Made by a program: the position numbers and the translations under genes. Positions 22,629 to 25,256 of a stretch of DNA of 64,000 nucleotides are shown piece by piece. The notes beneath the pieces were generated by a model. The model searched no databases. It was not told where the DNA came from and saw only the letters and a list, made by a program, of their open reading frames with translations. Position 1 is the stretch's first letter; every line of letters begins with the position of its first letter. The stretch covers positions 1-64,000 of the forward strand of contig NZ_JOCF01000021.1 in assembly GCF_000720635.1 (NCBI RefSeq), written 5' to 3'. This DNA is from Streptomyces sp. NRRL WC-3742. Lineage in GTDB: Bacteria; Actinomycetota; Actinomycetes; Streptomycetales; Streptomycetaceae.

Positions 22629-23696
22629 TCAGTGGCTGCGGCGGGTCACCAGTTCGGCGAGGGCGAGCAGTTCGTCGGCCGAGGAGGGCTCCGGGACGGC
22701 GACGGCCAGTTGCGCCATCGCCGCGGCCATCCGCTCGCAGGACTCGCCCTGCGCCCAACCGCGTCCGCCGGCGCCCTCGACGTCCGCCGCGCACTGCGCC
22801 AACTCCTCGGGGGTGAGGGGGCGTTCGAGGACGTAAAGCTCCGAGAGCCGGCGGCCCTCCGGGGTGTCGGAACCGAGCGCGGCGACCACCGGCAGGGACT
22901 TCTTGCGGGCGACCAGGTCCGCGCCGACCGGCTTGCCCGTCACGGCGGGATCGCCCCAGATGCCGATCAGGTCGTCGATCAGCTGGAACGCCAGGCCGAT
23001 CTCGCGGCCGAAGCCGTCCATCGCCTGCGCCGCTTCCCCGGAGCCGCCGCCGTACAGGGCGCCCATCGCGCAGGCGGCACCGAGCAGTGCGCCGGTCTTG
23101 GCCTCGGCCATCGCCAGGCACTCGGCGAGCGAGACGTCGTTGCGCTGCTCGAAGGCGCAGTCGATCTGCTGGCCCTCGCAGAGCTCGACCACGCAGTCGG
23201 TGAGCCGGCGGATCGATTCGCGGGCGGCCGGGTGCGCGTCCTCGGCGAGCAGGCGCAGGGCCAGGGAGTGCATGGCGTCGCCGGCGAGGATGGCCTCGGT
23301 GGTGCCGAACACCCGCCAGGCGGTGAGGCGGTGGCGGCGGGTCTCGTCGCGATCGATGACGTCGTCGTGGAGCAGGGTGAAGTTGTGCACCAGCTCCACC
23401 GCCGCGGCGGCCGCCGTGGCCTCGGCCGGGGAGCCGCCGAGCGCCTGGGTGGCGGCGAGGACCATGGCCGGGCGGATCGCCTTGCCGGAGGGGGCCGTCG
23501 AGGGCGAGCCGTCCGCCTCCCACCAGCCGAAGTGGTAGCCGGCGACCTTGCGCATCGCGCCGGGCAACGAGTCGACGGCCTCGCGCAGGACCGGGTCGAC
23601 GAGCGTGCGGGCGCGCTCGATGACGTTCGCGGCCTCGGCCCCCTCCCGGTGCTCGGGCCGCTCCTCGTGCGCTCGTTCCAGCGTGGGACTCGTCAT
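22629..23696 (-). CDS. Polyprenyl diphosphate synthase, probable encapsulin cargo
   Basis: 355-residue trans-isoprenyl diphosphate synthase. The first Asp-rich motif DDVID (111-115) and second DDLIG (241-245), the GKAIRPAMVL substrate region (71-80) and a CEGQQID segment are all present, so it should condense IPP with an allylic diphosphate; both Asp motifs are slightly non-canonical. Residues 1-22 (MTSPTLERAHEERPEHREG...) are polar and probably disordered, as expected for an encapsulin cargo-loading region. It lies 138 nt downstream of a family-2B encapsulin shell gene on the same strand; polyprenyl transferases are a recognised cargo type of family-2 encapsulins. The ATG at 23696 is the first start giving a native-looking N-terminus. 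Product chain length is unknown. Confidence 0.88.
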   Translation of the reverse strand: MTSPTLERAHEERPEHREGAEAANVIERARTLVDPVLREAVDSLPGAMRKVAGYHFGWWEADGSPSTAPSGKAIRPAMVLAATQALGGSPAEATAAAAAVELVHNFTLLHDDVIDRDETRRHRLTAWRVFGTTEAILAGDAMHSLALRLLAEDAHPAARESIRRLTDCVVELCEGQQIDCAFEQRNDVSLAECLAMAEAKTGALLGAACAMGALYGGGSGEAAQAMDGFGREIGLAFQLIDDLIGIWGDPAVTGKPVGADLVARKKSLPVVAALGSDTPEGRRLSELYVLERPLTPEELAQCAADVEGAGGRGWAQGESCERMAAAMAQLAVAVPEPSSADELLALAELVTRRSH

Positions 23697-23764
23697 GGGT
23701 CTTCTCTCCCCCTGTGGACGCCTGTCGGGTCGGCGTCTGGGGCCAGACGCCGTGTGGTGGGCGG

Positions 23765-23806
23765 CCGTGAGCCGGCCGGAACGTGCTCGATCCGGCCGGC
23801 TCACGG
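23765..23806 (-). terminator. Hairpin between shell and cargo genes (possible attenuator)
   Basis: Perfect 16-bp stem (23765-23780 with 23791-23806) with a 10-nt loop, 29 nt after the encapsulin stop and 69 nt before the cargo start. A T run follows it only in the + direction, so on the transcribed (minus) strand it is more likely a partial terminator or mRNA-processing/stability element than a full stop. Confidence 0.7.
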
Positions 23807-23834
23807 TTTTCTCGGCTCAGCGGTTTCCGGTTTT

Positions 23835-25256
23835 TCAGCGCTGCGCGACGTCCACGTTCTCCAGCACGCCGACCGCGTCCGGAACCAGGATCGCGGCGGA
23901 GTAGTACAGGCTGACCAGGTAGGAGATGATCGCCTTGTCGTCGATCCCCATGAAACGCACGGAGAGGCTCGGCTGGTACTCGTCCGGAATTCCGGCCTGG
24001 TGCAGGCCGATGACGCCCTGGTTGTCCTCGCCGATACGCATCCCGATGATCGAGGTGGTGTGCCCGCCGACGACCGGGATCTTGTTGCACGGGTAGATCG
24101 GCACCCCGCGCCAGGCGCTGATGTGCTTGCCGTCCACCTCGACCGTGCCCGGGTAGAGCCCGCGCTTGTTGCACTCGCGGCCGAAGGCGGCGATGGCCTT
24201 GGGGTGGGCGAGGAACATCCTGGTGCCGCGGCGGCGGCTGAGCAGCTCGTCCATGTCGTCCGGGGTGGGCGGGCCGGAGTGGGTCTGGATGCGCTGGTCG
24301 TACTCCGCGTTCTCCAGCAGGCCGAACTCGGGGTTGTTGATCAGCTCGTACTCCTGGCGCTCGCGCAGCGCCTCAATGGTCAGGCGGAGCTGGTGCTCGG
24401 TCTGGTTCATCGGCTGGTTGTAGAGGTCGGCGACGCGGCTGTGGACCTTGAGGATGGTCTGCGCGACGCTCAGCTCGTACTCGCGGGGCTTGAGCTCGTA
24501 GTCGACGAAGGCGCCGGGCAGCTCGTACTCGCCCGCGTGGCCGGCCGAGAGGTCGATCGCGGCCTCGCCGTGCTTGTTCTGCGCCTGCTGGAAGCCGTTC
24601 AGGTACTCCATGACCTGCAGCTGCAGCGCGTCGGAGCGGTCGTGCAGCTCCTGGAAGGACGGCCAGGAGAGCACCATCACCGTGCCGGAGGTCGCGGCGC
24701 GGACGGTGTACGGCCAGGTGCCCTCCTCCTGCTGGAGCGCCTCGTCGCCGAGGTGGTCGCCGTCCGCGAGGGTGCCGACGACCGTCTCCTCGCCGTACTT
24801 GCCGGTGCCGAGGCGGTCGAGCTTGCCGTGCGCGATGAGGAAGACCTCGCTGATCGGCGTACCGGCGGAGACCAGTACGTCGCCCGGGCCGAACTCGCGC
24901 TGGGTGAAGCGGCTCGCCAGCTCCTCCAGCACCCCCTCGTCCTCGAACCCGCGCAGCACCGGCACCTCGGCCAGCGTCTGGGGGACGATGCGCACCTCGG
25001 AACCGGTCTTGAAGAAGCTCACCCGGCCGCGGCCCACCGAGTGGCGGAGCCGGCGGTTGACCCGGTAGGTGCCGCCGGACACCTGCACCCAGGGCAGCTT
25101 CCTGAGCAGCCAACGCGGGCTGATGCCCTGCATCTGGGGCGCGGACTTGGTAGTGGTGGCGAGGGTCCGCGCGCCCGCCGTGCTCAGGGACTGCTGCTGC
25201 CGGATCTCGGCTTGCGCGTCAGGCGCGGGAATACCGGCATTGGTTTCGGTCGACAT
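23835..25256 (-). CDS. Family 2B encapsulin shell protein with cyclic-nucleotide-binding-like insertion (EshA-like)
   Basis: 473 residues, near the length of Streptomyces EshA. An HK97-type shell fold is split by a cyclic-nucleotide-binding-like domain at about residues 95-205 (LRGFEDEGVLEELASRF; FGPGDVLVSAGTPISEVFL); its phosphate cassette reads GDEAL (170-174) and VRAAT (185-189), so key features are kept. The shell-fold C-terminal half includes TILKVHSRVADLYNQPMNQ and VPIYPCNKIPVVGG, sequences I associate with the encapsulin-like protein of 2-MIB operons. Self-assembly into a nanocompartment is predicted from family membership. The ATG at 25256 follows GGGGAG. Its only plausible partner here is the downstream polyprenyl synthase. 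Confidence 0.92.
   Translation of the reverse strand: MSTETNAGIPAPDAQAEIRQQQSLSTAGARTLATTTKSAPQMQGISPRWLLRKLPWVQVSGGTYRVNRRLRHSVGRGRVSFFKTGSEVRIVPQTLAEVPVLRGFEDEGVLEELASRFTQREFGPGDVLVSAGTPISEVFLIAHGKLDRLGTGKYGEETVVGTLADGDHLGDEALQQEEGTWPYTVRAATSGTVMVLSWPSFQELHDRSDALQLQVMEYLNGFQQAQNKHGEAAIDLSAGHAGEYELPGAFVDYELKPREYELSVAQTILKVHSRVADLYNQPMNQTEHQLRLTIEALRERQEYELINNPEFGLLENAEYDQRIQTHSGPPTPDDMDELLSRRRGTRMFLAHPKAIAAFGRECNKRGLYPGTVEVDGKHISAWRGVPIYPCNKIPVVGGHTTSIIGMRIGEDNQGVIGLHQAGIPDEYQPSLSVRFMGIDDKAIISYLVSLYYSAAILVPDAVGVLENVDVAQR

What the first reader, a model, noticed from the sequence alone, without database searches (positions are those of the whole stretch)
22629..25256. Family-2B encapsulin shell gene paired with a polyprenyl diphosphate synthase
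The 473-residue shell protein contains a cyclic-nucleotide-binding-like insertion in an HK97-type fold and is directly followed by an isoprenyl diphosphate synthase with a polar, probably disordered N-terminus. Neither 2-MIB synthase nor its GPP methyltransferase is present, so this is not the usual odour-terpene version. It would be a compartment for making or handling a polyprenyl diphosphate, possibly gated by a nucleotide.
Basis: partly seen in the sequence, partly recalled or inferred. Interest (0 to 1): 0.78.

Follow-up and report, generated by a model that had tools for sequence, protein, structure and literature searches.

The report
Encapsulin shell with prenyl-diphosphate synthase cargo
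A bacterium of the Streptomyces family carries a gene for a virus-derived protein shell next to a gene for an enzyme that builds lipid precursors; the pairing is of an already recognised kind, and what this one makes or does in the cell is not yet shown.

Summary
On the minus strand, 23835-25256 encodes a 473-aa Family 2B encapsulin shell (NF041163: 756 bits, cut-off 400) and 22629-23696 a 355-aa prenyl-diphosphate synthase (NF041169, encapsulin cargo polyprenyl transferase: 496 bits, cut-off 450). This is a known kind: a 2021 survey counts 900 such operons. In the genus the two genes are adjacent in 65 of 66 testable genomes. The synthase most likely makes GGPP (inferred). Two leads go further: an N-terminal motif ending in Arg8 (62 of 64 genus synthases) joined to the enzyme by a variable linker, a candidate loading tag; and, in relatives but not beside this pair, bestrophin-like membrane genes (PF14023) next to Family 2B shells (22 of 74 within 4 kb; 0.17 expected). 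Assembly, loading and product are untested.

The parts
23835..25256 (-). Family 2B encapsulin shell protein, 473 aa
   Evidence: NF041163 756 bits (cut-off 400); PF00027 + PF19307; match to 9bix/9bhu/9bje
25191..25256 (-). N-terminal extension of the shell, residues 1-22, before the part modelled by NF041163
   Evidence: NF041163 match starts at residue 23
24636..24899 (-). cNMP-binding-like insertion, residues 120-207; Trp181 at the canonical Arg position, Asp171 at the Glu position
   Evidence: PF00027 52 bits; W181 77 of 77, D171 67 of 77 (9 E, 1 N); canonical residues recalled
23844..24590 (-). SrpI-like shell domain, residues 223-471, with R341-R342-R343 (Enc2-like motif)
   Evidence: PF19307 463 bits; RRR in 77 of 77; compared with Sl-Enc2 RRRK and Sl-Enc1 TVWK quoted
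23697..23834 (-). 138-bp gap between shell stop and synthase start; no terminator-like site in it; purine-rich run before the synthase ATG
   Evidence: sequence; scan
22629..23696 (-). prenyl-diphosphate synthase, putative cargo, 355 aa
   Evidence: NF041169 496 bits (cut-off 450); AlphaFold mean pLDDT 93.2; Foldseek best 3nf2, TM 0.89
23658..23696 (-). predicted disordered N-terminus, residues 1-13, holding T5-L6-E7-R8 (23673-23684): candidate loading tag
   Evidence: pLDDT < 50 for 1-13; Arg8 in 62 of 64 genus sequences; pN/pS 0.27 for codons 5-8 in 36 sequences
23352..23366 (-). first Asp-rich motif D111-D112-V-I-D115, with F106 five residues before it
   Evidence: D111, D112, D115 invariant, F106 nearly invariant, in the 44-row alignment
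22962..22976 (-). second Asp-rich motif D241-D242-L-I-G245
   Evidence: D241, D242 invariant in the 44-row alignment
25341..25377 (-). block upstream of the shell with two inverted repeats (GTTCGG-N5-CCGAAC; CACTC-GAAT-GAGTG): possible operator
   Evidence: second repeat nearly invariant in the window and 9 loci; pattern CACTCG-N(2-4)-GAGTG in 17 of 76 loci, within L018-L040

Best explanation
The pair is a one-shell Family 2B encapsulin operon of the polyprenyl-transferase type. The shell protein (HK97-type with a cNMP-binding-like insertion) self-assembles; the synthase, a type-I GGPP synthase by motif, is taken inside by its N-terminal tail and makes geranylgeranyl diphosphate from IPP and an allylic starter that enter through shell pores. 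Shown here: the gene identities, their conserved adjacency, intact catalytic aspartates, a confident synthase fold. Inferred: self-assembly (the shell carries the RRR motif of the S. lydicus component that formed shells alone), co-transcription, loading by the N-terminal motif, GGPP as product. Unknown: the use of the product and the ligand of the insertion domain, which is unlikely to be a cyclic nucleotide.
For: NF041163 and NF041169 above cut-off; homologous solved shells 9bix, 9bhu, 9bje; adjacency in 76 of 80 loci, 4 untestable, and in 65 of 66 testable genomes of the genus that have the synthase; the flanks change while the pair stays (RadA found in 23 of 80 loci, all among L018-L045); synthase model pLDDT 93.2, best structure match 3nf2, with the GGPP synthases 1wy0, 5jfq and 6kd7 among the first eight; D111, D112, D115, K200, Q238, D241, D242 invariant in the 44-row alignment; F106 at -5 and T107 at -4 of the first motif, the type-I GGPP pattern (rule recalled); IdsB GGPP synthase is the second-best NCBIfam model, though under its cut-off (377 of 475); the 2021 survey describes this operon type, 900 cases (passages).
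Against: No direct evidence of encapsulation. The disordered tail is far shorter than the 50-100 residues reported for such cargo. The N-terminal motif is not family-wide: Arg8 in 31 of 79 loci synthases, and three of those 31 (L070, L086, L096) do not look like the motif. One genus genome (G029) has the synthase without a shell on its 19.6-kb contig; one (G022) has a shortened synthase beside its shell; one (G010) has no synthase over the cut-off and none beside the one shell fetched. The genome has two more shells and a 2-MIB operon without a shell, so cargo may be shared.
Confidence: 0.8

Rival explanations
1. The synthase and the shell are co-regulated neighbours but the synthase is not the only cargo: the shell is shared and also takes terpene cyclases such as the 2-MIB synthase encoded elsewhere in the genome without a shell.
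For: The genome has three shells and, on contig C8, a 2-MIB synthase plus methyltransferase with no shell match in 14 kb around them; that synthase carries GPSGLGT near its N-terminus, close to the motif GPTGLGT that the 2021 survey suggests as a tag. No cargo gene was seen beside the two other shells (72% and 68% identity), but C122 is cut by a contig end on its downstream side.
Against: Shell-synthase adjacency is nearly invariant in the genus (65 of 66) and kept across genera, which fits a dedicated pair.
Confidence: 0.2
2. The synthase serves ordinary isoprenoid supply in the cytosol and the shell protein has another task (the EshA line of work on development), the two being linked only by co-expression.
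For: PMC6428758 (passage) says EshA of the S. venezuelae 2-MIB operon is not required for 2-MIB synthesis; PMC3878966 (passage) finds eshA and eshB of S. coelicolor up-regulated in development. That eshB is the synthase-type shell is recalled, not tested.
Against: The genome has 7 further prenyl-synthase matches, one in a cluster that I read as hopanoid-type (no domain search), so a cytosolic supply exists; a conserved N-terminal motif on a linker of variable length suits a tether.
Confidence: 0.15
3. The pair is gated by a cyclic nucleotide.
For: PF00027 match, 52 bits.
Against: Trp instead of the canonical Arg in 77 of 77 shells; published statement of no cyclic-nucleotide binding by the Family 2B insertion domain (PMC12407261, passage).
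Confidence: 0.04

Closest known systems
Family 2B polyprenyl-transferase encapsulin operons (PMC8346489, Nat Commun 2021; passages seen)
   Same: Shell with internal cNMP-like domain plus a polyprenyl transferase; 888 of 900 in Actinobacteria
   Different: Disordered tail predicted at 13 residues, not 50-100; that paper found no conserved tag motif, whereas an N-terminal motif is conserved within this genus
EshA / 2-MIB operon (eshA-mibA-mibB of S. venezuelae, PMC6428758 passage; S. griseus Family 2B shell 9bhu)
   Same: Homologous shell (9bhu, E 1.1e-190)
   Different: Shell gene stands with 2-MIB synthase and methyltransferase genes, not with a prenyl synthase; that 9bhu is of this type is recalled
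S. lydicus two-component Family 2B encapsulin (PMC12407261; passages seen; that 9bix and 9bje are its chains is my inference)
   Same: Homologous shells; this shell has the Enc2-type RRR motif
   Different: One shell gene on this contig, not two in an operon; the operon there is of the xylulose-kinase type
IdsB-like GGPP synthases (NF045549) and the own-genome paralogue at C29 (47%)
   Same: Same enzyme family and first aspartate motif
   Different: The paralogue scores under the NF041169 cut-off (397 against 450); in 20 of 21 paralogues examined the N-terminus starts VE(S/A/H)R and none shows the TLER motif (starts by my rule)

Membership tests
Family 2B encapsulin shell | Scores over the curated NF041163 cut-off | tested here: met
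   756 against 400 bits
Family 2B encapsulin shell | Internal cNMP-binding-like domain together with the SrpI-like shell domain | tested here: met
   PF00027 120-207, PF19307 223-471
Family 2B encapsulin shell | HK97 fold | tested here: inconclusive
   Own model poor (pLDDT 55); homology to three solved chains
Family 2B encapsulin shell | Assembles into closed particles | not testable with these tools
   Needs expression and microscopy
Family 2B polyprenyl-transferase cargo | Scores over the curated NF041169 cut-off | tested here: met
   496 against 450 bits
Family 2B polyprenyl-transferase cargo | Encoded next to a Family 2B shell | tested here: met
   138 bp apart, same strand; conserved
Family 2B polyprenyl-transferase cargo | Disordered N-terminal domain of 50-100 residues (reported as typical; the survey's classes rest on the shell domain and the cargo type, not on this) | tested here: not met
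   Only residues 1-13 under pLDDT 50; reported length
Family 2B polyprenyl-transferase cargo | Found inside the shell | not testable with these tools
   Needs co-purification
Two-component Family 2B system | Two shell genes within 10 kb | tested here: not met
   The other two shells are on other contigs (C14, C122)
Cyclic-nucleotide receptor | Canonical Arg (and Glu) of the phosphate-binding cassette (recalled) | tested here: not met
   W181 77 of 77; D171 67 of 77, E 9, N 1
Type-I GGPP synthase | First Asp-rich motif DDxxD and an aromatic residue at -5 (rule recalled) | tested here: met
   D111-D112-x-x-D115, F106
Type-I GGPP synthase | Over the curated cut-off of the IdsB GGPP synthase model NF045549 | tested here: not met
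   377 against 475 bits
Type-I GGPP synthase | Makes C20 product | not testable with these tools
   Needs enzyme assay

The most novel reading that the evidence does not exclude
Family 2B encapsulins have an unreported membrane partner: bestrophin-like proteins (PF14023), encoded beside shells in different gene contexts in six genera of the family, tie the shell to the membrane or pass small molecules to or from it. In relatives of this window the operon reads shell - prenyl synthase - bestrophin-like protein, which would place a lipid-precursor factory at the membrane.
Probability: 0.4. Interest if true: 0.65.

Novelty: new member of a known kind. Interest (0 to 1): 0.38.

Why it matters
The pair itself is ordinary for its genus and of a kind that NCBI already names. 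It matters as a clean one-shell, one-cargo case for an open question: why a soluble prenyl synthase should be shut in a virus-derived shell, and how it gets in. The conserved N-terminal motif gives a specific residue (Arg8) to test as part of a loading tag, where the 2021 survey found no tag. The bestrophin-like neighbour seen in relatives, if functional, would link Family 2B encapsulins to the membrane and bear on the unknown role of their insertion domain.

Tried and rejected
Nucleotide gating: rejected on residues and literature. Two-component shell in cis: the other shells are on other contigs. AlphaFold model of the shell: too poor to use, so no fold search was made with it. A family-wide tag: Arg8 is in only 31 of 79 loci synthases, nearly all among L018-L048 plus L081, and in the long-linker class of the genus (28 sequences) pN/pS of codons 5-8 is 0.95, because two sub-motifs (VPER, TLSR) mix. 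Start codons were chosen by my own RBS rule, which can bias N-termini; L161 gave no start and was dropped, and two sequences starting MFTLERD were left out of the column counts. Inverted repeat GTTCGG-N5-CCGAAC: exact only in the window and, in another spacer sequence, L019. Rfam match RF02735: set aside as perhaps only conserved coding sequence. PF14023 association: one row under the cut-off (G076) was dropped, two of its 80 shells pass the cut-off only with neighbouring pieces in the frame, three genomes count twice, and related genomes are not independent; the 65 shells were picked by hand from tables (cut at 150 rows). Control family GtrA (PF04138): 0 of 150 listed rows (list cut) within 6 kb of a shell. 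That the bestrophin link is unreported rests on two searches, 'encapsulin'+'bestrophin' and 'encapsulin'+'DUF4239', 0 papers each, in an open-licence library; supplements were not searched. One neighbour query (DUF19988) was out of frame; its rows are not used. Genes were called by a simple codon-position G+C rule of mine, which missed or mis-set some.

Full report
What is there. The two genes lie on the minus strand: shell 25256->23835 (473 aa), then 138 bp, then synthase 23696->22629 (355 aa). The shell scores 756 bits on NF041163 (family 2B encapsulin shell, cut-off 400) and the synthase 496 bits on NF041169 (family 2 encapsulin cargo, polyprenyl transferase, cut-off 450). Pfam puts a cyclic-nucleotide-binding-like domain at 120-207 and the SrpI-like shell domain at 223-471. 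Three solved chains match over almost the whole length; PMC12407261 names 9bhu as the S. griseus Family 2B shell (passage). Of 120 listed homologues of the synthase (7062 found, candidates capped), most bear the NCBI name 'family 2 encapsulin nanocompartment cargo protein polyprenyl transferase'.

Conservation. In the genus, 70 of 70 genomes searched, the own one included, have a Family 2B shell over the cut-off and 67 have a synthase over the cut-off. Of these 67, 63 have a listed shell within 2 kb upstream on the same strand; two more came up when the cut list was completed (G011; G027, whose shell is cut by the contig end); G047 cannot be tested (synthase 175 bp from a contig end); G029 is an exception, with no shell on its 19.6-kb contig. 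So 65 of 66 testable. Of the three genomes without a synthase over the cut-off, G003 has a fragment at a contig edge, G022 a shortened synthase beside a shell (L205), and G010 none beside the one shell fetched (L206). The surroundings change: RadA is found in 23 of the 80 loci, all among L018-L045 (Kitasatospora-type), and not in the Streptomyces loci, where a GNAT-like gene often follows the synthase.

The synthase. AlphaFold gives mean pLDDT 93.2 and a helical fold; only residues 1-13 form a stretch under 50. Foldseek: 3nf2 (S. coelicolor polyprenyl synthetase, TM 0.89) first, GGPP synthases 1wy0, 5jfq and 6kd7 among the next seven. In the 44-row alignment, five paralogues included, D111, D112, D115, K200, Q238, D241 and D242 are invariant. 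Phe at -5 and Thr at -4 of the first motif fit the type-I GGPP rule (recalled). IdsB GGPP synthase is the next NCBIfam model but under its cut-off (377 of 475). I therefore predict C20; this is inference.

A candidate loading tag. In 66 genus synthases (65 relatives and the window) the N-terminus begins with a short motif followed by a linker of very different length: 45 to 94 residues stand before the YHxGW motif. Among the 64 whose motif lies in register, residue 8 is Arg in 62, written with four synonymous codons, and residue 7 is Glu in 51. In the 36 sequences without indels pN/pS is 0.27 for codons 5-8, against 1.05 for codons 2-4, 0.40 for 9-16 and 0.49 for 17-44. Against: the long-linker class (28) has 0.95 for codons 5-8, since VPER and TLSR forms mix; paralogues of the hopanoid-type locus also have a rather conserved, different N-terminus (21 examined); and in the 79 loci synthases Arg8 is in only 31, the Streptomyces ones starting for example MTSTDAATEGHEA. 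The motif does reach three loci outside Kitasatospora-type genomes (L043, L046, L081). The 2021 survey reported no conserved tag in this cargo type (passage).

The insertion domain. W181 is invariant in 77 aligned shells where the canonical cyclic-nucleotide domain has Arg (recalled), and D171 (67 of 77; Glu in 9) stands at the Glu position. PMC12407261, in passages I saw, says that the domain was shown not to bind cyclic nucleotides and that some other ligand may bind. The shell carries RRR at 341-343 in 77 of 77, like Sl-Enc2, which behaved as an encapsulin on its own in S. lydicus work, whereas shells of Sl-Enc1 alone were not observed (passages).

The rest of the genome. Two more shells, on C14 (72%) and C122 (68%). 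The C14 type sits between an ABC-transporter-like gene and a glycogen-debranching-like gene, as in L206 and L212 (names from my reading). The C122 type is followed in relatives by an unassigned ORF (no Pfam match in L202, the one scanned) and a PF14023 bestrophin-like gene. The own genome's single PF14023 gene (C77:793-1491) is at a contig start, and the C122 contig ends in an ORF that matches the unassigned one; they probably adjoin, not proven. A 2-MIB synthase with GPSGLGT and its methyltransferase are on C8 with no shell match in 14 kb.

A membrane neighbour in relatives. PF14023 genes lie next to Family 2B shells far more often than chance: in 46 genomes of the family (17 genera) 22 of 74 are within 4 kb of one of 80 shells, 0.17 expected under uniform placement, in 19 genomes of 6 genera. 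In 31 genomes of the genus 26 of 67 are within 4 kb of a shell, 6 of them directly after a shell-synthase pair like this one. The arrangements differ: shell then PF14023 61-320 bp apart on one strand with no synthase match in the 15-kb locus (9 loci); shell-synthase-PF14023; shell-ORF-PF14023; convergent; and once divergent from a shell-methyltransferase-2-MIB-synthase operon (L225). Against chance also speaks a control membrane family, GtrA: 0 of 150 listed rows within 6 kb. Against the lead: 52 of 74 PF14023 genes are not near a shell, 11 of 17 genera show no such case in this sample, and this window's pair has none beside it. Two searches of the paper library found no paper with both 'encapsulin' and 'bestrophin' or 'DUF4239'.

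Verdict. A sound observation of a known kind of system; new member. The nucleotide gate is unlikely. The two leads, the Arg8 motif and the bestrophin-like neighbour, are what a specialist might follow.

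Noticed in passing
L213-L226, L228, L229; G-handle genomes: PF14023 bestrophin-like membrane genes lie beside Family 2B shell genes in six genera and in several arrangements, 22 of 74 within 4 kb against 0.17 expected.
   Followed up: partly
window 24700-25208 (+): Rfam RF02735 (Saccharopolyspora sRNA 350, antisense type) matches at 140.6 bits, gathering score 50, on the strand opposite the shell gene. It may only reflect conserved coding sequence, or an antisense RNA to the shell.
   Followed up: no
G000:C8:58000-72000 (L104, L230): A 2-MIB synthase with GPSGLGT and a GPP methyltransferase without a shell match, next to a two-domain terpene synthase that carries GPTGLGT.
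   Followed up: partly
L015 9066-10496; L206; L212: A third shell type sits between ABC-transporter-like and glycogen-debranching-like genes, with no cargo gene seen beside it (names from reading, no domain search).
   Followed up: partly
L205 3569-4372 (-); L207 5437-6462 (-): One genus genome has a shortened synthase ORF (about 268 aa) beside its shell, another a synthase with no shell on its contig.
   Followed up: no
window 25341-25377: Block with inverted repeats upstream of the shell; the repeat CACTCG-N(2-4)-GAGTG is in the window and 17 of 76 loci. A possible regulator site; the S. venezuelae eshA-mibAB promoter is bound by BldC (PMC6428758 passage).
   Followed up: partly
L047, L051-L054, L058, L060, L063, downstream of the synthase: A GNAT-like gene follows the synthase on the same strand in many Streptomyces loci (family 9, 24 loci); the name is from its sequence look, no domain search was run.
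   Followed up: no
window 25495-26097 (-): A 6-O-methylguanine-DNA-methyltransferase-like gene (PF01035) lies upstream of the shell on the same strand, with relatives in 16 of the loci.
   Followed up: no
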